Positions 24,523 through 63,619 of a stretch of DNA of 64,000 nt are shown here, piece by piece; the first letter of the stretch is position 1; every line of letters starts with the position of its first letter. A program made the position numbers and the translations under genes. This stretch comes from Candidatus Gastranaerophilales bacterium (lineage in GTDB: Bacteria > Cyanobacteriota > Vampirovibrionia > Gastranaerophilales > Gastranaerophilaceae): contig CALUXX010000001.1 of the NCBI GenBank assembly GCA_944324845.1, positions 186,001-250,000 on the forward strand, given 5' to 3'. The notes beneath the pieces are model-generated. The model was not told the origin of the DNA, searched no databases, and worked only from the letters and a program-made list of their open reading frames with translations.

Positions 24523-26211
24523 ATGATAAATAAAGTTGAATTAGGTAGTGTAAATAGCAAATGTGCCCCGGCTGGAAAGTTTGGGTTGAAACAAAAAGGA
24601 TCGACTAGTTTTACAGGACTAGGCGGATTTGCATTGAAAGGTATTCAAAAATGTGAAGAATACCCAATGCTTAACGTTACTGTTTTGGATTTATCTACTG
24701 CGATTATTCCAAGAACTTTCTTTGAAACTTTTATTGGTTCAAAGAAAAAGGATGAAAACGGTAATGAACAAAAAGAACGTAAATTAAATATTATGGGTGG
24801 TTTTGAAGCTTTCAGACGTGAATCTTCAGGACTTATTATCAACTGTATTATTCCTAGTTTTATCGTTCAAGCAGTTGCGTGTGTATTACAAAAGCCTATA
24901 ATGGGTGTTTTTAGTAAGTCAGGTTTGTTCAGAAGTTGGGCTAACAGTGATACTATAAACAAAGTTCAAAAATATTACACTGAAGCTATTGGTGATAGCA
25001 AAGAAGATAAAATCTTTAATACCCTAAAATCTATGTTTGATGATATTGAGGGTGTTGATGGTGATATTGATAAAAATGGTTTGAAGAAGTTTAAAGATAT
25101 TTTAGGTAATGACAGTGAATATATCTCAAAATTAAGAGAAACTGCTAAAAATATTGCTTCTGACAATCATAAAGGTTCTTCTGATCTTTACAAATACATT
25201 GTTTCTAAAACAGGTATTGCAGAAAATATAAGATTTTCTAAAGAAAAAGGATTTTTCTCAAGCAGCTTAGGACATCTTTGCGAAAGTGCTCAAGATTTGT
25301 TGCATGGTATCGTAAAAGAAGAGGCTAATATTAAAAATGCTGATGATTTAACAAGATACTTTACAAAAGCTAAACATCTTGTTAATGCTAAGAGTATTTT
25401 CGGGTTGGGTATAATTATACCTTTAGCTCTTGCGGCTCAACCTATCAATAGATGGATTACTCACAAAATGTCCGGTAAAAAAGGTGCTCCGATTTATAAT
25501 GATGATAAAGAAAGAGTTTTAACTCCGGAAGAAAAAGTTAAATTAACTGCTCAAAAATTCTTAGCAGTTCCTTCTATGTTAGGTGTTGCTGCTTTATCTA
25601 TGATTATGGATAGACCAAGTTTGAAAATGTTCCAATTTAAGAATATTTTCCCTACTATGGATCAGGCAAGAATTATCTCTGCTGCTACTTTCTCTAGTAG
25701 AATTGCTGCTTCTGAAGATTCCAACGAATTAAAAGAAAATACTATAAGAGATATTGCAACGTTTTCAAGTTTTTATTTCTTAGGCGATTATGCAGCTAAA
25801 GGTATTGCTACATTCCTTGAAAATAAAAACAATGACGGTATTAAACTAATTAACAGACTTAAAAATACTGCTGATGATGCTAATGTATTGCAAAAATTCT
25901 GGAATTGGGCTAAACATACCAAGATGAAATCAACAGATGAATTGGAAGCTATTGCAGATACAGCATTAAGGACTAAGGCTAAAAACTTGAGAGCCTTCTG
26001 TCAATTAGGTAATCTTGCATTCTCACTAATTTCATTGGGTGTATTTATACCTCTATATACAAGAACTCAAACTAATAAGAAAAATCAACAAAATCAACAA
26101 CAAAACGAAAATGCTAGTAATATGATAAAAACCTCTAATGGAGCCGCTACAACATTTACCCAAAAATTAATAAAAGATAAAACTACAGCATTCAGTTCAT
26201 TTTTTAACTAA
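24523..26211 (+). CDS. Uncharacterised membrane protein, paralogue A (562 aa)
   Basis: I recognise no known family. A polar N-terminus carries S-F-T-G (residues 29-32). A block follows with VLDL (54-57), I-I-P-R-T (61-65) and F-E-A-F-R-R-E (94-100). Hydrophobic segments lie at about 103-122, 292-308, 345-361, 405-425 and 495-515, with a large charged helical region between the first two. The second segment ends AAQPINRW, and the third is followed by FQFKNIFPTMDQ and NELKE. The C-terminus is rich in Gln and Asn. The adjacent downstream gene shares all these blocks in the same order. There is no cleavable signal peptide, so the N-terminus should be cytoplasmic. Confidence 0.8.
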   Translation: MINKVELGSVNSKCAPAGKFGLKQKGSTSFTGLGGFALKGIQKCEEYPMLNVTVLDLSTAIIPRTFFETFIGSKKKDENGNEQKERKLNIMGGFEAFRRESSGLIINCIIPSFIVQAVACVLQKPIMGVFSKSGLFRSWANSDTINKVQKYYTEAIGDSKEDKIFNTLKSMFDDIEGVDGDIDKNGLKKFKDILGNDSEYISKLRETAKNIASDNHKGSSDLYKYIVSKTGIAENIRFSKEKGFFSSSLGHLCESAQDLLHGIVKEEANIKNADDLTRYFTKAKHLVNAKSIFGLGIIIPLALAAQPINRWITHKMSGKKGAPIYNDDKERVLTPEEKVKLTAQKFLAVPSMLGVAALSMIMDRPSLKMFQFKNIFPTMDQARIISAATFSSRIAASEDSNELKENTIRDIATFSSFYFLGDYAAKGIATFLENKNNDGIKLINRLKNTADDANVLQKFWNWAKHTKMKSTDELEAIADTALRTKAKNLRAFCQLGNLAFSLISLGVFIPLYTRTQTNKKNQQNQQQNENASNMIKTSNGAATTFTQKLIKDKTTAFSSFFN

Positions 26212-26236
26212 AATATAAATAGCAAAGGCATAACTT

Positions 26237-27970
26237 ATGAAAATCGAAAGTAACTTACAACAATTTAGAACACAAAAATATTCAGATAAAAGACAAGTAC
26301 AAAATTCGGCGATATACGGTAATCAAAACTTAAATAATAAATCTTCAAATCCTAATTTTACGGGTTGGGGTGATTTGTTTTTAAGATTTTTAGATACCAA
26401 CCAAGCTTGGGGTGCAACATTTGTTGACCTTGGATTTATGGTATTGCCAAGAACGGTTACAGATTTTACTCGTAATACAGATGCCGGTATTGAAACTTTC
26501 CGTCGTGAAGGTATGGGAAATGCTAATCACGCGATGATTGGTTTATATGGTACTTTGGCAGGATTACTTTTTGCTACTGGAATTAATAGGCTTTTTCAAT
26601 TAGGTAAAAATGATGTAAAAGCCAGCTCAATTTTTGCAGATTCTGAAACTATCAATTTACACGGTCAAATTTATAATGAAGCTTTGAAATCTGCAAAAGA
26701 TAATGCTAACGCTAATCCTTTGCGAGATTATTTAAAAGAAACTTTGAAAAATTATGAAGCTTTAAGCCCTGATGAAAATGCTAAATGGGTTAAATTTAAT
26801 AGTAAAACGATAGATTCAGTTTCTGATATTTTAGAAAGTGAAATTAGAGCAGATGGTAAGAAACTTTCTAAGGATTCATTTAATCAAATTAGAAGTCTTT
26901 TGGTTTCTGATTCTAAAGTTGAAAATAATTACAGAATTGTTGCAAAAGCTGGTGAAAGATTACATTCATCTCGTTATGAAATCGGATCTATTATCAGTAA
27001 TATGTTTAACTTAGGTAAAGTATTCAATAAACAAACTGTTATTGATGCCTTTAATGCTGCTGAAGAGTCAGCTAGAGCTGCTGCTAATAAAGCGGAACCT
27101 ATTGTTGGAAATGCATTTTTAAAAGCGCTGAAATCTTTGAACTTAAAACGTTCACTATTAGGTATTGGAATTGCTTCTGCTGTTGGTATTTCTGCTCAAC
27201 CTCTTAATATGTATTTAACTAAGTTAAAAACCGGGAATAGTGGTTTTGTAGGTGGTGGCGAAGAAGATAAATCTAATGCATTCAAACTTAAAAAAGGTCT
27301 ATTTGCAACCTTATTTGGTGCTGGTGTTCTTGCAACAATCGGCAATCCTAAAAACTTGCTTAAAAATCTTCAATTTAAAGGTTTATCTCCGACTATTAAC
27401 CAATTTAAGTTTATTTATGGCGTTACCATTATGTCAAGATTTTTTGCAGCCAGAAATGATAACGAATTGAAAGAAGCATCTTTTAAAGATATTTTAGGTT
27501 TTGCTAACTGGCTTTTATTGGGTAACTTTGTTCAAAAACTTGTTGCTCAAGGTTTGGATAAATCTTTAATTAAACGTGATGGTAAAGGTGTTCTTAACTG
27601 GATTCAAAATTCTGCACTAAAAACCAGAGATGAAATTTTATTTGCTCATTTAGGTGAAAAAGCTTTTGATAAAAATGGTAAGGCGCTTTCTTACCAAAGT
27701 ATGGTAAATCTTGCTGATAAAGCTACAAAAACTAAACTTAAATATATCAAGATTGCTCAACTTGCTGGTTATTTATATTCAGGACTGGTATTAGGTTTTG
27801 GTATTCCAAAATTGAATATTTATATGACTAAACGCCGTATGGCAAAACAAAATGCTAATCAAAATCAAGATCAAGCTAATGTTATTGCAGCGGATAATAT
27901 GCTAAAACCGGAAAATATTAAGTTCCTACGAAATATGAATAATTTTACAGGTTCAGAAATTTTAAGATAA
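26237..27970 (+). CDS. Uncharacterised membrane protein, paralogue B (577 aa)
   Basis: This is the tandem paralogue of the preceding gene (25-base gap, AAAGG ribosome site). The same ordered blocks appear: N-F-T-G (40-43), FVDL (62-65), L-P-R-T (70-73), I-E-T-F-R-R-E (85-91), a hydrophobic segment at about 98-116, a second ending SAQPLNMYLT, then LQFKGLSPTINQ, SRFFAA, NELKE and a last hydrophobic stretch LVLGFGIPKL. A second N-F-T-G lies a few residues from the C-terminus. The function is unknown. Its stop codon is 2 bases from the convergent atpG stop, with no terminator between them. Confidence 0.8.
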   Translation: MKIESNLQQFRTQKYSDKRQVQNSAIYGNQNLNNKSSNPNFTGWGDLFLRFLDTNQAWGATFVDLGFMVLPRTVTDFTRNTDAGIETFRREGMGNANHAMIGLYGTLAGLLFATGINRLFQLGKNDVKASSIFADSETINLHGQIYNEALKSAKDNANANPLRDYLKETLKNYEALSPDENAKWVKFNSKTIDSVSDILESEIRADGKKLSKDSFNQIRSLLVSDSKVENNYRIVAKAGERLHSSRYEIGSIISNMFNLGKVFNKQTVIDAFNAAEESARAAANKAEPIVGNAFLKALKSLNLKRSLLGIGIASAVGISAQPLNMYLTKLKTGNSGFVGGGEEDKSNAFKLKKGLFATLFGAGVLATIGNPKNLLKNLQFKGLSPTINQFKFIYGVTIMSRFFAARNDNELKEASFKDILGFANWLLLGNFVQKLVAQGLDKSLIKRDGKGVLNWIQNSALKTRDEILFAHLGEKAFDKNGKALSYQSMVNLADKATKTKLKYIKIAQLAGYLYSGLVLGFGIPKLNIYMTKRRMAKQNANQNQDQANVIAADNMLKPENIKFLRNMNNFTGSEILR

Positions 27971-43865: not shown

Positions 43866-44369
43866 TTATTGTATTCCCAACATTAGTTTATTCATGTTGG
43901 CTGTTATATTCATTGCACTTAGAAGTGTGTTTTGACTTTTGCTTATTCCTGTATATTCATTTTGTATTGAATTCAGTTCGTTTTGATAGTTGTTTATTTC
44001 ATTTGATTTTTGGTTATTGTTTTGTTCGGTTGTTAAGGTGTTTAATCTTGTGGAAATTTTATCTATAAGGTTGTCTAAAGTGTCGTTTGTTGATGTTGAG
44101 ATGTTTAGTTTTGAAGCTAAGTCTTTTGCTCTTGAAATTAATTCACTTTCGCTTGTGGTACAGGTGTTTTGTGAGGAACTTTCATTTTTAGTTTCTTGTA
44201 TTTTTTGTTGTGCGGATGCAATTAGCGCTTGTGCTTGTGATTCTGAAGTTACCGTTGATGGATCTATTCCCAATGCTTGTAATTTTCGCTTTGTTTCTTC
44301 GCTTAGTTTATTTTGGGTTGTTTGTGTTAAATTATATCCACTTGTTGAAGAAATACTATTTACAGACAT
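43866..44369 (-). CDS. Hypothetical 167-residue coiled-coil protein
   Basis: A soluble protein rich in Ser, Thr, Asn and Gln, without a signal peptide or membrane span. Predicted helices with heptad spacing cover the middle (ELISRAKDLASKLN) and the region NQKSNEINNYQNELNSIQNEY. The segment LQALGIDPSTVTSESQAQALIASAQ looks like a short helical hairpin. I recognise no family. It is divergent from mlaE and ends in a clear terminator. Confidence 0.65.
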   Translation of the reverse strand: MSVNSISSTSGYNLTQTTQNKLSEETKRKLQALGIDPSTVTSESQAQALIASAQQKIQETKNESSSQNTCTTSESELISRAKDLASKLNISTSTNDTLDNLIDKISTRLNTLTTEQNNNQKSNEINNYQNELNSIQNEYTGISKSQNTLLSAMNITANMNKLMLGIQ

Positions 44370-45225: not shown

Positions 45226-46992
45226 TTAAATGTTTTGTTTATAAACTTGATCTGTGTAAGATTCTATATATGGTGTATCAATTTCAAATACGTGAACTCT
45301 TCCAGGTCCAAGGTCTACTGCTACTTTTCCTTGTGATACTTGGAATTTGCTATCTTCACCGTATGAAGGTAATAAGTTTTCAAGTTTTTGGCGTTCTTTT
45401 AATGTCGGTACAATGACATTTCCTGTTGTTCTTCTGTTAACATTGCGATTTGCTATAACTAATATTGTTTTTCCTCTTTTGTGTCTTGCAAATGCAATAA
45501 TTTGATCTTTTTTATCGCCTTCTTTGTTCAATACTATATATGAACCTGTACTGATTAAGTCTATGTATTTATCTCTGAATTTCATTGCGTCAGTAAAGAA
45601 TTCTCCGATTTCTGGATTCTCTCCGCCAGGTTTACGTGATAAATTGAAAATATCAAGCTTCCCTTCGTGAGTTTTCATCTCATTAGAATCAGTTTGAGTC
45701 TTTTCGTTATATGTATTTCCATATTTATAAGTGTAATAATCTCCTGATTGGAAACCATCTACCGAATATGGATTTAACATTGGTAAGGTTGCTTGTAAAC
45801 CTGATGTTAAATTACAATATACAGTACCGCCATGGAACATTGGTGATATGTCATCGTGAGTTGCGAATGAACCGATTAATGATTTACCTTTTTCCAATCT
45901 GTATGACATATTTAGATTATCAATTACGTAATTGTGTAATTCTTTTGCTGTGTTCCATTCATTAAAAATGTGATACTGTCCATAGTATGTATCAAAACCT
46001 GCTCTTAATGAGTCTTCAGGTCTATCATAAGGCATGTTTGCTTGTGGTGATGCATCTTCATATGTATATGTTTCTGCTAACCAAGCAAATTCAGGATTCC
46101 TTTTTCTTGAGTATGGAATTAAAATGTCCCAAAATTCAACAGGTTTTGCTCTGGCTACGTCTGCTCTAATTCCGTCAACTCCTGCATCTATTAACATATC
46201 AACAAATTTTCTGTGATATTCAAGTAGCTCAGGATTTAATGTTCTTTTTCCTTCATCTTCCCAAGGTTCAAACATTCTAATATCGTACCAACCTTGTGGT
46301 GTTTTTGCTAAACCGTTTCGTTCATGAGCCATTAGATCAGGTCTGTTTTCATATAATGTAAATGATGCACAACTTGGCATATCTACCATAACTCTTATGC
46401 CTCTGTTATGACATGCATCTACAAATGCTTTGAATTGTTCTTTATCTGAGCGTGGATCATTTTTATCAACTAACATTGGGTCTATTTTTAATAAATCTTC
46501 CGGGGAATATACAGAGCCTGCTGTTCCCATTGCGTTTTCTTTTCCTGGTGGATTTATTGGTAATACGTGTAGTGTATTGTAGCCTTGTGCTTTTATTTCA
46601 TCAAGTCGTTTTATTCCATTTAAAAATGTTCCGCAAGTTTCGTTTTGATCTATATATTCATTGCCGTTTTTATCTTGAGCATTAAACGTTCTTGGCACCA
46701 TTGCTAGTATTTTTACTCTGTTTGTTAAAAATAAGGTTCGCAAGTCATTTTTGTATGGTTTTACAGGCTCAGTATTTATTTCTGATACCGGTTTTACTAC
46801 AGGTTTATTTGCATTTGCTATATTTTCCAAATATTGACTTAATAAATTACTTCCGGTCAAGCCTGTTCTAATTGTCGGTTGACTTTGGATTTCTGATATT
46901 GGATTTGTTGTTTGGGTTGTTATAGCGGTATTTCTATATTTGTCCAAAAAATTAGAGCCAAAAGTTGTTTTGTTATAATTCATTGTAATCAT
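45226..46992 (-). CDS. GH13 alpha-amylase-family protein with duplicated N-terminal module
   Basis: A 588-residue protein. The GH13 barrel has region I-like VMVDMPSCAS, nucleophile Asp in GIRADVARA, acid/base Glu in WLAETYT and the third acid in FATHDDISP, so it should be active on alpha-glucans. A C-terminal all-beta domain ends at about 580. There is no signal peptide, so a cytoplasmic role in glycogen use is likely. The first 77 residues contain two copies of a 30-residue module (GSN-[F/L]-L..Y, then P-[I/V]-S-E-I). D107-x-N-x-N-x3-D-x2-E118 resembles a calcium-binding loop. The start overlaps the previous gene's stop (TAATG). Confidence 0.9.
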   Translation of the reverse strand: MITMNYNKTTFGSNFLDKYRNTAITTQTTNPISEIQSQPTIRTGLTGSNLLSQYLENIANANKPVVKPVSEINTEPVKPYKNDLRTLFLTNRVKILAMVPRTFNAQDKNGNEYIDQNETCGTFLNGIKRLDEIKAQGYNTLHVLPINPPGKENAMGTAGSVYSPEDLLKIDPMLVDKNDPRSDKEQFKAFVDACHNRGIRVMVDMPSCASFTLYENRPDLMAHERNGLAKTPQGWYDIRMFEPWEDEGKRTLNPELLEYHRKFVDMLIDAGVDGIRADVARAKPVEFWDILIPYSRKRNPEFAWLAETYTYEDASPQANMPYDRPEDSLRAGFDTYYGQYHIFNEWNTAKELHNYVIDNLNMSYRLEKGKSLIGSFATHDDISPMFHGGTVYCNLTSGLQATLPMLNPYSVDGFQSGDYYTYKYGNTYNEKTQTDSNEMKTHEGKLDIFNLSRKPGGENPEIGEFFTDAMKFRDKYIDLISTGSYIVLNKEGDKKDQIIAFARHKRGKTILVIANRNVNRRTTGNVIVPTLKERQKLENLLPSYGEDSKFQVSQGKVAVDLGPGRVHVFEIDTPYIESYTDQVYKQNI

Positions 46993-49541
46993 TATTTTGC
47001 CTCCTTATTTTTCCAAGGATTTTTGTTTCTTCCAATAAATAGTTGAGCTAGTAATGTTACTCCAATTAGCCCTGCACCTAATTTTCCAAATACACTGAAC
47101 CATTTACCACTGTTAAACATGTTGTGGAATGCTTTATAGGCAACATCTGCCGGTGCGCATCCTGTTAGTATAAATCTTTGTTCTGATGTTGATTTTACTT
47201 TTCTTCCATCTACAAGATGATTTGGTTTTGCAAAATAGAAGTCTCCTCCAAGAATTTCTAGTGCATCTTTTCTGAAATTCCTGAAATCATCCCAGAATCC
47301 TGATTTCTTTATTTTTTCTGCTGTATCTGGGTGTAAGTCTTCTCCATACATTAATTTCATTACGGACTCAAAGTAATGCCTATCATTTGCAAATTCAACA
47401 CATTCTTTTTCGCCTACTCCTAAGTATTGATTTATTACTTTTCCATTTGCCGTTTCTATTTGTCTATAGTCACTCTTATTTGCTTCAGGATTTCGTAATT
47501 GCCAGAATTTAACTGCAAAGTCTGAAGTATGACCTTCTAGCATTATTGTTTTTGCTAGTTCTACCATTTCTTCTTTTACTTCTTTTGGTATCCTATTATT
47601 TAATATTGCAGTATCTCGACCATCTAAATGGGCTATTCTGTAATATAAATCTGCAAAGTTTAAGAATCTATAGAATGAACTTTTTACACCTTTTATTCTG
47701 TCATCTACAAATTTTAGCATTAATTGTCTTGATGAAGTGTTTGGTGAAACTATATTTCCATAACCATCAATTATTCCTCCTATTGATGATGCGGTATGTC
47801 TCATTCCATTTCCTAATAAGGTCTTTGCTGTGTTATCACAAGTTGAATTAACTATTGTTTTATATGCGTTTTCATCTTGGGTCATATCTATTTGTGTTGA
47901 TTTGCTGTATAAATTAGATAATAAGTTTTCCATCTTATCGATGAATTTTGTATAACTTTCTTTATTTGCAACTATTGATTCCATTTTATTACGTAGAATT
48001 TCTGTTGCTATTTCATTATCTATTCTTGCTTGTTTTATTTCATCTTGTGTAAAGTTCATTGCTTTAAATATTTCATCAGACATGTGGTTCCAAATATTGG
48101 CAAGTCCTGTTTCCGGAGCTTGGGCAACTTTTATGTAAGCATATCTGTCTAGAACTGCACTTTCTGCTTTGAATGTATTTAATCTATCACTTACGGCTTT
48201 TATTGTTTTTACTTTTTCCGGTGTTAAGATTTCTGCAGGTTCAAGTTTTAACGCCTCAAATAATGGTGAATCTTTTCCTAACTTTTGTGAATGAACTATT
48301 TTCTTTGCGTTAAATTGAAGTTGTTTTTTGGTTCTTTCATCCACTTCTGATGATATATCTTCTATATTTTTGGTTAATATGCGTTGTAATGTTTTTGAAT
48401 GTTCTGTAAAATCATTATATGTGCCATTTAGCAAACCTTTACTTGTAAATTCTTCTGTTAGTGTTTGAGCATTCGGTATTATTCTTTCTACAATATTTTC
48501 AGGAAGTTTTATCGGTTTTAATACTTCTCTTATAGTATCTTGAATTGCTTTTACGCTATTATCTGTGATTTTATAGTTTTTATCTTGCGGTAATAGCAAA
48601 TCTAAATCTCTTTTTAAACTATCACTAACTACTTTATCAAGTCCGTTTGATATGTTTTTGTGTAAAGATTCTACTAATTCTTTTGTTATTGGTTTGCCTT
48701 CATTTTCTGTTAATATTTTTGCTAATTCGGCACTGCCTTTGCTGAAATCATATTTTTTGATTTCTTGTGGGAAGTGTTCTAAAAGATTATCTGCAAATTT
48801 ATCCATTTTTTGATCTGTAATTTTATTTACAGGTTTTTCTAAAGCGTTACATAATAACGCACTTATTAATGGTGTTGCAAATCCTGAGGTTAACATCCAT
48901 AGGGTGTTATTTTGTAATGCAATTTGACGCATTTTTTCTTGTATTGCATTTCTTCTGTTTGGTATATCTTTTGGTATTCCTAATCTGTCACCAATTCTAT
49001 TGATTACATCGTCTGGGTATAAGTCCCAAGGTATAAATTGGTGATCTTGGTAAAATAATTTCTTTCTTCCATAATTATCTTCGTAATATTGTCTTACGTT
49101 GAATCCATGCACTAATTGTGCCGGAAGTTGGATAAATAATTTCGGCCATAAATCCATTGCTGCAAAAAATGTTCCAAATCCTATAAATTCAAATAATTTA
49201 GTTTTTGGAGTTTGTTTTTTAGTGAATAAATATGATGCCAAAACCAATCCGCCAAATTTCATTCCAACATCATTTAAGCGTCCTAGTTCGTGATCGTTTG
49301 CTTTTCCTCTTAGTGCGTGATAAAAAGCTTTTATGTCATATTTTATATCTTTTTGAATTTCTGCCGGATAATCCATAATTGTCGGGTTCAAAAGTTTTCC
49401 GTTGCTTGGCAATGGCTTTATAAATGTTCTGTTTGTTAGTTCTCTGTGAACATCAAAATCTCTTGATACCTTATCAGACTGATATTGTTGTGTGTTTGGA
49501 TTGTTTCTTATGTATGATTGTAGTATATTTGTTGTTCTCAT
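46992..49541 (-). CDS. Uncharacterised 849-residue membrane-associated protein
   Basis: I recognise no known family. Hydrophobic stretches occur at about 93-107, 125-140, 210-232 and near the C-terminus (WFSVFGKLGAGLIGVTLLAQLF), with a long charged helical middle of about 450 residues. A block LPAQLVHGF..FIPWDLYPDD (about 144-187) has a counterpart in the gene upstream, which has KPIQMITGI..FPRWDLLYGD. The gene starts right after that gene's stop and its own stop overlaps the amylase start, so the three are one operon. The middle region has heptad-like spacing. Confidence 0.78.
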   Translation of the reverse strand: MRTTNILQSYIRNNPNTQQYQSDKVSRDFDVHRELTNRTFIKPLPSNGKLLNPTIMDYPAEIQKDIKYDIKAFYHALRGKANDHELGRLNDVGMKFGGLVLASYLFTKKQTPKTKLFEFIGFGTFFAAMDLWPKLFIQLPAQLVHGFNVRQYYEDNYGRKKLFYQDHQFIPWDLYPDDVINRIGDRLGIPKDIPNRRNAIQEKMRQIALQNNTLWMLTSGFATPLISALLCNALEKPVNKITDQKMDKFADNLLEHFPQEIKKYDFSKGSAELAKILTENEGKPITKELVESLHKNISNGLDKVVSDSLKRDLDLLLPQDKNYKITDNSVKAIQDTIREVLKPIKLPENIVERIIPNAQTLTEEFTSKGLLNGTYNDFTEHSKTLQRILTKNIEDISSEVDERTKKQLQFNAKKIVHSQKLGKDSPLFEALKLEPAEILTPEKVKTIKAVSDRLNTFKAESAVLDRYAYIKVAQAPETGLANIWNHMSDEIFKAMNFTQDEIKQARIDNEIATEILRNKMESIVANKESYTKFIDKMENLLSNLYSKSTQIDMTQDENAYKTIVNSTCDNTAKTLLGNGMRHTASSIGGIIDGYGNIVSPNTSSRQLMLKFVDDRIKGVKSSFYRFLNFADLYYRIAHLDGRDTAILNNRIPKEVKEEMVELAKTIMLEGHTSDFAVKFWQLRNPEANKSDYRQIETANGKVINQYLGVGEKECVEFANDRHYFESVMKLMYGEDLHPDTAEKIKKSGFWDDFRNFRKDALEILGGDFYFAKPNHLVDGRKVKSTSEQRFILTGCAPADVAYKAFHNMFNSGKWFSVFGKLGAGLIGVTLLAQLFIGRNKNPWKNKEAK

Positions 49542-50588
49542 CTAGCACACCACACTTTCTTTTTTAGGATTAATCACGTCATTATGTTTTTGTGGTTTTT
49601 GAGTCAGGTGTACTGAATTTGCTACACCTAAAACTGTTGTTATCGCTGCTAAACCTAATAGTGCTTTCCCTGCATGCTTTGTTATCGGCGATTTAGAATG
49701 AACCGGTCCTTCATATAAAGCTTTTGCACTTCTTACTAAACTTCTGCCGAAAACTTTTAGGGAATGCATAAAATCTTTTCCTTTCCATACTTTTAGGGTT
49801 GCAGCCTTAAAGTAATCATCCCACGGCTTTTGGAATGCTAATGCTACAGCTGTTACTGCCCATAAAAATGATGAAAAACTCTTTGCTAATTTTGATTTTA
49901 CCAATACTTCTTTGTATATAGGTTTTACGTCTTGGTCGGAATCGTTCAAGTCTGTTCCTAATCCATTTTTCTGTGCGATTTTATCATATCTGAAGTTTCT
50001 CGCTTCACCTTTTTTAGGATCTCCATATAATAAATCCCATCTTGGAAAATCTACACTTTCTCCAACCTTATGATATTCAATACTTGTTAAATCATCATAA
50101 ACACCAGGTCTTTCTTGTAAGAAGTAATTAACTTTTGCATATGGAAGTTCTGTATCTATGCCTGTTATCATTTGGATTGGTTTTGTAACCAATACTTTTG
50201 ATGCTTCTTTGGCTAAGGCATATAATAATACTCCTAATGCCATTTTGTTGCCTAATTTTGCCGCTTTTATTGCTGCATTGTGTGAAAAATGCTTGTTAAC
50301 ACTGTTAAATATCGAAATTAATGTTGCACTACCAATTATGAATGGTACGTTTTGTCCCAGTGTTAAAAATTCATAAAAGTTTGAATTGATACTTCCTTTT
50401 AAACCTTTTGCAGGATATATTGTGAACGCTTTAGTTAATTTGTCTAAACCTATCCTCGTTCTTGTTGCAAAATTGTTGTTTAATAAGGTATCCTCATCGT
50501 ATGCAGAATCCGCCCCTGTTTTTTCTTTCGGCTCTGATTTAAATGTTACTAATCTGTTTTCCCTAAAATTACTAATCGGTGATATCAT
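49542..50588 (-). CDS. Uncharacterised 348-residue membrane protein
   Basis: I recognise no known family. The N-terminus carries V-T-F-K-S (14-18). Hydrophobic segments lie at about 78-95, 112-128, 243-258 and 318-334 (LLGLAAITTVLGVANSV). The block KPIQMITGI...FPRWDLLYGD matches a block of the next gene's product. It is the first gene of a three-gene operon ending in the GH13 enzyme. An inverted repeat lies 39-62 bases upstream of its start. Confidence 0.75.
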   Translation of the reverse strand: MISPISNFRENRLVTFKSEPKEKTGADSAYDEDTLLNNNFATRTRIGLDKLTKAFTIYPAKGLKGSINSNFYEFLTLGQNVPFIIGSATLISIFNSVNKHFSHNAAIKAAKLGNKMALGVLLYALAKEASKVLVTKPIQMITGIDTELPYAKVNYFLQERPGVYDDLTSIEYHKVGESVDFPRWDLLYGDPKKGEARNFRYDKIAQKNGLGTDLNDSDQDVKPIYKEVLVKSKLAKSFSSFLWAVTAVALAFQKPWDDYFKAATLKVWKGKDFMHSLKVFGRSLVRSAKALYEGPVHSKSPITKHAGKALLGLAAITTVLGVANSVHLTQKPQKHNDVINPKKESVVC

Positions 50589-61415: not shown

Positions 61416-62063
61416 ATGAGTAATGTTATTGTTTCACCATCAATTTTGTCTGCTGATTTTGCTAATTTGGAACGAGATGTTCATATGGTAGAAGATGCAG
61501 GGGCAGATTGGATTCATGTTGATGTTATGGATGGACATTTTGTGCCGAATATAACTATTGGTGCGCCTGTTGTTAAAGCATTAAAAAAAGTTACTAATAT
61601 TCCATTGGATGTTCATTTGATGATTGATAATCCGATGAAATATGTTGAGGATTTTGCTGATGCAGGTGCTGATATTTTAACTTTTCACTATGAAGCCGTT
61701 AAAGAAGATGAAATTATGCCTTTAATTGATAAAATTAAAAGTTTAGGTGTAAAAGTTGGGATTGCTGTTAAGCCAAAAACAAAGCCTTCTGATATTGATA
61801 AGTATTTACCTTTTGTTGATTTGGTTTTGGTTATGACGGTTGAACCAGGTTTTGGCGGTCAAAGTTTTATGTATGATTGCGCTGATAAAATTGAGTATTT
61901 TAAACAAAAATGCTATGCGGATGTTATTATTCAAGTAGATGGCGGTGTAAACGCTGAAACTGGCGATCTGTGTATTCGAAAAGGTGCAACTTCTCTTGTT
62001 GCAGGTAATTATATCTATAATGCAATCAATATAAATGCTTCGATTGCATCTTTAAAAGGTTAA
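61416..62063 (+). CDS. rpe: Ribulose-phosphate 3-epimerase
   Basis: A 215-residue TIM-barrel enzyme. VSPSILSADFANLE is at the start, VDVMDGHFVPNITIG carries metal ligands, then DVHLM, VEPGFGGQSF and VDGGV. It interconverts ribulose 5-phosphate and xylulose 5-phosphate. The start follows rnc by 2 bases. Its stop overlaps that of the convergent low-complexity gene (TTAA) with no terminator. Confidence 0.97.
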   Translation: MSNVIVSPSILSADFANLERDVHMVEDAGADWIHVDVMDGHFVPNITIGAPVVKALKKVTNIPLDVHLMIDNPMKYVEDFADAGADILTFHYEAVKEDEIMPLIDKIKSLGVKVGIAVKPKTKPSDIDKYLPFVDLVLVMTVEPGFGGQSFMYDCADKIEYFKQKCYADVIIQVDGGVNAETGDLCIRKGATSLVAGNYIYNAININASIASLKG

Positions 62064-63619
62064 ACAGCTTCACCTTTTCTCATTTTTCGTTTTAAGATTT
62101 CATCCAGATTTCCGCTGGCTATTTTTTCCTGTTTCTTTTCAACTTCAGTTTTCTTATCGTCTGTTATGTTGGATTCTTCTTTTTCGGCTTTTTTCATTAA
62201 GGTTTCTGTTTTGGCTATATCTGTGTTGGTTTTAGAATTTGGATTTGTTTTATCTGTTGCTTTTTCTCCGGTTTTTGTATTTTGAGTTCCTGTATTTTGA
62301 CCTGTCGTTGTAGTTCCGTTTTGTTCAGCTAATCGGTTATCGCCTGATACTTCTCCTGCTGATACTCCGGTTGTATTATAAATGTTTGTTTGACTGTCTT
62401 GAATGGTACTTCTGTTTGCGTTGTTTTTATCTGATATTATTGCTCCATTGTCCTGCAAACCTTTTCCGGCACTTACTGCATATTTGCCTATGCTTTCTAA
62501 GCTTATAATGATAGGAATGTTGAATAAGATATTTTTTACTTCTTTTTTTAAGTCTATTGTTGTATTTCCATAGTCTTGTGTTTCAACTCCAATGGTTGTT
62601 CCGTCATTTATAGTTGCTTGATATAAATTTAAATCTGTATCGTAACCTAAGGCTACATTTTGCCCTGTTGTTCCGAGATTTTTTAATTCATCTTCTATTT
62701 GTAATGCCTTTGCAAAATCTGATTGATTTTTATTTCCTTTATTTTTTATGTTATTTAATTGTGATTTAAGGTCATTTGCTTGCCCTAATAAATCACTCAT
62801 ATAGCTGTCCAAACTTGCTATTGCGTTGTCTGAAGCTTCTCCGATTGTTGTTAAATCGTTGGACTTTTCGTTTGCGGTATTTCCTTTGTTAGAACTTTCG
62901 CTGATAAATGTTTTAGCTATAGAAATTATATCTTGACCTTCTTCTTCCATTTTTTTTCGTTTTTCATCAGCGGTCATTTTTTCTTCTTGTTCTTCTTCTG
63001 TTTCTGTTCGGGGATTTGTTTCTGTGGGTTCTCCTCCTTCGGTTGAATTTGTCGTTTGGGTTTGTTCTGTCGTTGTGTTTGTTGTTGGTGTAGTATTATT
63101 TGTTTCTTGTTGTTGCTGATTTTGGACAAGTTGAGTTTGTTGGACTGTTTGATTTTGTCCATTTTGCTCAACGCCTTGTAGTGTTTCATTATTTTGTTGA
63201 AGGTTATTATATGTTTGTATAGCTTGAGATAGCTGTGTTGGTCTTACGTTCTCTTCTTCATTTCGTATCGGTTGTTGTGTTGTGGCTGGGGTGTTTGATG
63301 TCGTTTGTTCAGGTTGATTTGGTTGAGATTCTGGCTCAACTTCATTATTCTGTGCATTGTTATTTTGTTCTGGTAATGGGGCTTGTGTAGGGGTTTGAGT
63401 TTGGTTATTTTGTGGGGTCGTTGGTTTTGAGATTGCCATTTCGTATGTGGTTTCATCTGTGTCATTTTTTTCTAAATCTACACGAAATGCTCTTGCCCAA
63501 GACAAATATTCCTGGGGTACATTTATTCCCTCATTATCGTATTTTATTATTTCTTTTGCTGTTAACCTCCGCCAATCAATGATTTTGGGAGTTGTCATAC
63601 TTATTCTTGATACGTCCAT
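62060..63619 (-). CDS. Hypothetical 519-residue low-complexity protein
   Basis: The first 60 residues look folded (IIDWRRLTAKEIIKYDNEG, then VPQEYLSWARAFRVDLE). Residues 66 to about 210 are low complexity, dominated by Gln, Thr, Asn, Pro and Glu, then a charged stretch follows (about 210-228, rich in Glu and Lys). A central part with heptad-like spacing (about 255-310) and a possible beta region (NLYQATINDGTTIGVETQDYG) come next, and the C-terminus is basic. There is no signal peptide and no family is recognised. A role as a scaffold or cell-surface/appendage linker is speculation. Confidence 0.7.
   Translation of the reverse strand: MDVSRISMTTPKIIDWRRLTAKEIIKYDNEGINVPQEYLSWARAFRVDLEKNDTDETTYEMAISKPTTPQNNQTQTPTQAPLPEQNNNAQNNEVEPESQPNQPEQTTSNTPATTQQPIRNEEENVRPTQLSQAIQTYNNLQQNNETLQGVEQNGQNQTVQQTQLVQNQQQQETNNTTPTTNTTTEQTQTTNSTEGGEPTETNPRTETEEEQEEKMTADEKRKKMEEEGQDIISIAKTFISESSNKGNTANEKSNDLTTIGEASDNAIASLDSYMSDLLGQANDLKSQLNNIKNKGNKNQSDFAKALQIEDELKNLGTTGQNVALGYDTDLNLYQATINDGTTIGVETQDYGNTTIDLKKEVKNILFNIPIIISLESIGKYAVSAGKGLQDNGAIISDKNNANRSTIQDSQTNIYNTTGVSAGEVSGDNRLAEQNGTTTTGQNTGTQNTKTGEKATDKTNPNSKTNTDIAKTETLMKKAEKEESNITDDKKTEVEKKQEKIASGNLDEILKRKMRKGEAV

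What the first reader, a model, noticed from the sequence alone, without database searches (positions are those of the whole stretch)
24523..27970. Tandem pair of large, unrecognised paralogous membrane proteins
The two proteins (562 and 577 residues) share an ordered set of blocks: [S/N]-F-T-G, a V-x-D-L or VLDL block, P-R-T, E-[A/T]-F-R-R-E, A-Q-P-[I/L]-N, F-K-x-x-x-P-T-x-x-Q, N-E-L-K-E and a final hydrophobic stretch. There are five hydrophobic segments at matching positions and a large charged domain. I know of no family with these features. A two-protein complex is plausible.
Basis: seen in the sequence. Interest (0 to 1): 0.65.

Follow-up and report, generated by a model that had tools for sequence, protein, structure and literature searches.

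The report
Two-module protein pair, function unknown
Two neighbouring genes in a gut bacterium related to cyanobacteria encode sister proteins of a family with no known relatives, built from two parts that elsewhere are separate or swapped in order; the family occurs almost only in bacteria that also keep a second, flagellum-like export machine, so it may belong to that machine.

Summary
A (24523-26211) and B (26237-27970) are paralogs (BLASTP 3e-25) with the same predicted order of structural elements and no match in Pfam, NCBIfam, PHROGs, PADLOC or the PDB (sequence or Foldseek). A directly precedes B in 79 of 79 Gastranaerophilales loci. 'Membrane' needs softening: B's segments are no more hydrophobic than those of soluble proteins in the window. 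New here: each protein fuses two modules, X and Y. A homologous family, D, has the order Y-X, a circular permutation (profile p = 1.4e-10 and 1.3e-7; shuffles no lower than 0.014). In two other families of the class X and Y are separate genes, overlapping in 12 of 12 loci (4 bp in ten), so their products probably act together. Function is inferred, not shown. Nearly every genome with the family carries a second FlhA-type export gate, kept even where flagellin is absent; none of 61 genomes without that gate has the family. D genes often sit beside export genes; A-B genes do not. Best guess (0.4): an X/Y complex working with, or exported by, that machine. Equal rival (0.4): a resident inner-membrane complex unrelated to export.

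The parts
24523..26211 (+). protein A, 562 aa, X-Y fusion
   Evidence: ORF; paralog of B, 3e-25; AlphaFold2 pLDDT 77, pTM 0.73; no family hit
26237..27970 (+). protein B, 577 aa, X-Y fusion
   Evidence: ORF; AlphaFold2 pLDDT 82, pTM 0.77; no fold match in PDB or BFVD
26212..26236 (+). 25-bp gap between A and B; -4 to +32 bp in 79 orthologous loci
24523..24609 (+). A: polar, disordered N-terminal leader (residues 1-29)
   Evidence: pLDDT below 50 for residues 1-31; Asn+Gln 19% in orthologs against 10% for N-termini in the genome sample
24610..24618 (+). A: F-x-G motif (F30, T31, G32) at the head of module X
   Evidence: F30 and G32 invariant in 56 orthologs
24598..25512 (+). A: module X (about residues 26-330), with the soluble insert, ending AQPINRWIT..SGKKGAP
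   Evidence: matches the C-terminal half of D, p = 1.4e-10 and the separate X genes of other families
25618..26112 (+). A: module Y (about residues 366-530), SR..A..NELKE..RD, then IPLYTRTQTNKK
   Evidence: matches the N-terminal half of D, p = 1.3e-7 and the separate Y genes
26191..26202 (+). A: C-terminal FxxF tail (F557, F560)
   Evidence: F557 and F560 at least 90% conserved in 56 orthologs
26237..26356 (+). B: polar, disordered N-terminal leader (residues 1-40)
   Evidence: pLDDT below 50 for residues 1-42; Asn+Gln 34% in residues 2-26 of orthologs
26357..26365 (+). B: F-x-G motif (F41, T42, G43) at the head of module X
   Evidence: F41 invariant and G43 at least 90% conserved in 57 orthologs
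26342..27271 (+). B: module X (about residues 36-345)
   Evidence: same element order as A
27356..27871 (+). B: module Y (about residues 374-545), opening with a second F-x-G (QFKG)

Best explanation
A and B belong to a new family, here called XY. Shown by computation: each protein is a fusion of module X (F-x-G, D..PR, E..RRE, a mixed helical domain, a long helix ending QP-x-N-x3-T) and module Y (F-x-G, SR..A, NELKE..RD, a long helix ending IP-x-x-N-x3-T); X and Y also exist as separate overlapping genes and in the reverse order. Inferred, likely: X and Y pack together, and A and B form a hetero-complex at a membrane through marginally hydrophobic helices, with free disordered N- and C-terminal tails that could serve as docking peptides. 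Inferred, speculative: the XY complex works with the second FlhA-type, flagellum-derived export machine of these bacteria, either as an exported membrane-inserting pair (in the way that translocator pairs work) or as a resident accessory of the machine.
For: Modules: halves of A/B/C match halves of D in swapped order, p = 1.4e-10 and 1.3e-7, against column shuffles with p no lower than 0.083 and 0.014 and reversed profiles at 0.24 and 0.23. X and Y are separate genes in 12/12 loci of families f5/f47, overlapping by 4 bp in ten, 7 bp in one and 1 bp in one. A-B adjacency 79/79. Export link: 51 of 117 class genomes have XY; 49 of them have an FlhA2 of at least 58% identity and 2 have FlhA2 fragments; of the 66 without XY, 61 lack FlhA2. 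An FlhA-type protein is in 116/117 family genomes although flagellin is in only 48/117 and not in this genus. D lies near export or rod genes in 11/21 loci in four arrangements: flgC-flgB-flgG-flgF, flhA-fliH-fliG-fliF-fliE, a FliG-like paralog, an FlhA C-domain paralog. Polar leader without a hydrophobic signal in nearly all orthologs and hydrophobicity near the limit reported for exported membrane proteins (PMC6110835).
Against: A-B loci themselves are at background for export genes: 1 of 21 (fliI in L073) once the F1-ATPase hits and one lytic transglycosylase hit are discarded, and C loci 2 of 20. Eight of the eleven linked D loci share one arrangement, so they are not independent. The XY/FlhA2 co-occurrence follows the tree of the class and could be plain descent. 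Four f46 genomes and one f5 genome have FlhA2 without a detected XY. No chaperone gene was seen by A-B. Nothing shows secretion, membrane insertion or binding.
Confidence: 0.4

Rival explanations
1. A and B are a resident inner-membrane complex (a transporter, channel or scaffold with two similarly built halves, as many transporters have) that has nothing to do with protein export; D is a relative that happens to lie near export genes.
For: Two-module build with conserved charged residues (D..PR..E..RRE; SR..NELKE..RD) in or next to the helices; A has clear hydrophobic segments; A-B loci often lie between rsmE-cca and the atp operon, housekeeping genes, with export genes only at background.
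Against: B is hardly more hydrophobic than soluble proteins; no match to any transporter fold; does not explain the D linkage or the FlhA2 co-occurrence.
Confidence: 0.4
2. The proteins are mainly soluble or peripheral scaffolds, for example for alpha-glucan metabolism, recruited through an F-x-G leader that several glucan enzymes of this genome also seem to carry.
For: C lies beside a GH77 gene; a GH13 protein (window 45226-46992) and two GH77 proteins have polar N-terminal leaders, with F-x-G clearest in L145:933-2960; D lies by a GH77 gene in L310, where one search matched it to 4-alpha-glucanotransferase.
Against: F-x-G is not well conserved in the GH13 orthologs; the L145 GH77 gene is in only 4 of 45 genomes; no glucan gene was recognised at A-B loci.
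Confidence: 0.12
3. The pair is a mobile or phage-derived element.
For: None found; considered because the family is unknown.
Against: No PHROGs or PADLOC hit, conserved chromosomal position next to atp genes over many genera, wide spread over the family.
Confidence: 0.02

Closest known systems
Type III translocator pairs (YopB/YopD-like)
   Same: Two proteins from neighbouring genes with weakly hydrophobic helices and polar N-termini (analogy from general knowledge).
   Different: No Pfam hit to any such family, no chaperone gene seen next to the pair, and no evidence of secretion.
Exported membrane effectors of type III/IV systems (PMC6110835)
   Same: Segments near or below the usual inner-membrane targeting level.
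   Different: A has segments above that level; export is untested; no sequence relation found.
Membrane transporters with two related halves
   Same: Two modules with similar long helices (helix at the end of X against that of Y in B, p = 7.5e-6) and conserved charged residues.
   Different: No Foldseek match; X carries a large soluble insert; X and Y can be separate genes; X-to-Y homology over the whole module is only suggestive.

Membership tests
Any Pfam, NCBIfam, PHROGs or PADLOC family | profile match above cut-off | tested here: not met
   Best Pfam hit E = 0.041, below its cut-off; only scattered single-member hits among 57 B orthologs
A solved structural family (PDB) | sequence or fold similarity to a solved structure | tested here: not met
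   Profile searches: best E = 0.07; Foldseek: no E below 0.05, TM-scores at or below 0.22
Type III translocator pair | two genes in tandem | tested here: met
   79/79 loci
Type III translocator pair | homology to a known translocator family | tested here: not met
   No Pfam hit for A, B, D, separate X or separate Y
Type III translocator pair | class II chaperone gene beside the pair | tested here: not met
   Neighbours that were read are rsmE, cca, atp genes and others; not every neighbour was scanned with profiles
Type III translocator pair | secreted by a type III machine and inserted in a target membrane | not testable with these tools
   Only indirect signs: polar leader, marginal hydrophobicity
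Integral inner-membrane protein | several clearly hydrophobic spans | tested here: inconclusive
   A: up to 2.35; B: at most 1.41, within the range of soluble proteins
FlhA-type export machine (the co-occurring machine, not A/B) | FHIPEP protein with FliI, FliF, FliE and FliH partners | tested here: met
   FlhA 690 bits (below the FlhA equivalog cut-off of 772), FliI/YscN family 548 bits (over its cut-off), FliE 57 bits (over), FliF and FliH weaker
Complete flagellum (the same machine) | flagellin gene | tested here: not met
   No PF00669 match in the own genome or the four other genomes of the genus sampled; present in 48 of 117 family genomes

The most novel reading that the evidence does not exclude
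Gastranaerophilales keep a flagellum-derived, flagellin-less protein export machine whose clients carry a polar leader ending in F-x-G, and A and B are a pair of such clients that insert in a membrane to form a new kind of translocation pore.
Probability: 0.12. Interest if true: 0.9.

Novelty: new variant of a known kind. Interest (0 to 1): 0.58.

Why it matters
The pair defines a protein family with no recognised relatives, present in most members of an abundant gut bacterial order and in two further families of its class, with a clear evolutionary build: two modules as overlapping genes, fused in one order in A/B/C and in the other in D. If the link to the second FlhA-type machine holds, the 'incomplete flagella' reported for many Gastranaerophilales (PMC4040986) would be a retained export system rather than decay, and A, B and D would give handles to test it.

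Tried and rejected
(1) F-x-G as a genome-wide sorting signal: plain F[TKS]G is not enriched at N-termini (ratio 1.13). With a polar leader required there is an excess in the own genome (14 against 4.3 +/- 2.1, B and C included; relaxed test without A, B, C and D: 42 against 22.0 +/- 4.6, maximum of 200 shuffles 33), but none in the f5/f47 sample (10 against 9.5), and in GH13 orthologs the motif is poorly kept. It also heads module Y, so part of it is module structure. Left open. (2) 'Order-restricted' distribution was an effect of a weak profile; a 57-sequence profile finds the family in two more families. (3) FliI hits beside A-B were F1-ATPase subunits, except in L073. (4) Internal X-to-Y homology: only suggestive (halves of D p = 1.9e-4; halves of A/B/C 0.0039, with the reversed control at 0.001). 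(5) Gene neighbours of A-B (rsmE, cca, atp) gave no functional clue. (6) Promoter and terminator scan: nothing above chance. (7) The other tandem pair in the window (46992-50588) showed no similarity to A/B at E 1e-3.

Full report
Check of the observation. They align over nearly their whole length at 25% identity, E = 3e-25, and every listed block is present in order; most are conserved in 56-57 orthologs. No Pfam, NCBIfam, PHROGs or PADLOC family matches; no solved structure is similar by sequence.

Structure. AlphaFold2 with 57 and 56 aligned sequences gave confident models (B: pLDDT 82, pTM 0.77; A: 77, 0.73). The order of helices and short strands is much the same in both: a helical N-terminal part, an inserted domain of helices and small strands, a long helix, further helices, and a very long last helix. 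Foldseek found nothing credible in the PDB or among viral models. AlphaFold DB was not on hand, so 'no known fold' is limited to those libraries. The two models were not superposed on each other; 'same fold' rests on element order and sequence homology.

Membrane or not. True membrane proteins in the same window reach 2.2-2.9 on the 19-residue Kyte-Doolittle scale; A reaches 2.35, C 1.77, D 2.04, and B only 1.41, within the range of soluble proteins such as DnaK. Ortholog medians of the top segment are 2.14 for A and 1.56 for B. A membrane location is likely for A and uncertain for B.

Gene order and distribution. In 79 of 79 loci from public genome contigs, nearly all filed as Gastranaerophilales, Melainabacteria or uncultured bacteria, that hold both genes, A is followed by B on the same strand with a gap of -4 to +32 bp. 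The pair often lies between rsmE-cca and the atp operon. 100 of 117 genomes of the family match B. In a tree, A sequences form one group (support 0.49) and B sequences another that also takes in three single genes (support 1.0), so the duplication is old. A third copy, C, lies elsewhere in this genome.

Two modules and a permutation. A further protein, D (L012:9317-10858; 50 of 60 genomes have a match), is homologous in a swapped way: the N-terminal half of A/B/C matches the C-terminal half of D (p = 1.4e-10) and the C-terminal half of A/B/C matches the N-terminal half of D (p = 1.3e-7); thirty column shuffles gave nothing below 0.083 and 0.014. Families f5 and f47 of the class hold X and Y as two genes; in all 12 loci examined they are adjacent on one strand and overlap, ten by 4 bp, one by 7 and one by 1. 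Five further loci there hold fused X-Y genes. The simplest reading is that X and Y are partners, fused as X-Y in A/B/C and as Y-X in D. X and Y may themselves be related, but that is only suggestive.

Link to an export machine. 116 of 117 genomes of the family have an FlhA-type protein, but only 48 have flagellin; none of the five genomes of the own genus that were searched does. The own genome carries FliE, FliF, FliH and FlhA in one cluster, and FliI, an FlhA C-domain-only paralog, FliJ and hook/rod proteins elsewhere. Over the class, 51 of 117 genomes have XY; 49 of these have this FlhA2 at 58% identity or more and two have pieces of it (G045, G469); of 66 genomes without XY, 61 lack FlhA2 and 5 have it. 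The pattern follows the tree, so descent alone could produce it. D lies near export or rod genes in 11 of 21 loci of about 14 kb, against 6 of 40 spaced 20-kb stretches of the own genome, two of which hold only a lytic transglycosylase; eight of the eleven share one arrangement. A-B loci show 1 true case in 21 and C loci 2 in 20. In G436 the separate X-Y genes lie about 3 kb from fliJ, fliK, flgD and flgE. Soo et al. described most of the Gastranaerophilales genomes then known as having only a subset of flagellar genes that would not make a functional flagellum (PMC4040986).

How it may work. Exported membrane proteins of type III and IV systems tend to have segments just below the inner-membrane targeting threshold (PMC6110835). 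A and B have polar, disordered leaders and mostly marginal segments, which fits export but also fits a resident complex. I therefore give the export-linked reading and the resident-complex reading equal weight.

What is not claimed. No secretion, binding, membrane insertion or activity has been shown. The F-x-G leader is enriched in the own genome but not in the other families sampled, and its meaning is open. Interest is set at 0.58 because a conserved, unrecognised two-module family with a permuted relative and a testable link to a second export machine would surprise a specialist, while the mechanism remains weak. Novelty is set at 'new variant of a known kind' because the best-guess role lies within type III export; as a protein family it has no known relatives.

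Noticed in passing
L298:4071-10080 (G000:C2): FliE, FliF, FliG-like, FliH and FlhA genes in a genome without flagellin: a possible flagellum-derived export machine kept in nearly all Gastranaerophilaceae.
   Followed up: partly
L130:13988-15472 (-), and L308-L312, L314, L315, L325: An FlhA paralog that keeps only the C-terminal (substrate-docking) domain, near D in several genera, with a GH77 gene between them in L310.
   Followed up: partly
window 46992-50588 (-): A second tandem pair of unrecognised proteins (849 and 348 aa) next to a divergent GH13 gene (45226-46992); not similar to A/B.
   Followed up: partly
window 45226-46992 (-): GH13 protein with a polar N-terminal extension; all 45 genomes tested have a match, most of them two.
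   Followed up: partly
L334, L335, L336, L339, L344, L351, L353: A conserved pair of unrecognised genes (about 460-560 and 380-425 aa) beside the separate X-Y genes in families f5/f47.
   Followed up: no
L175, L183, L184: Contigs filed as Muribaculaceae or Fusobacterium carry the A-B pair, so they are probably misassigned.
   Followed up: no
window 43866-44369 (-) and 62060-63619 (-): Low-complexity Asn/Gln/Ser/Thr-rich proteins of unknown role.
   Followed up: no
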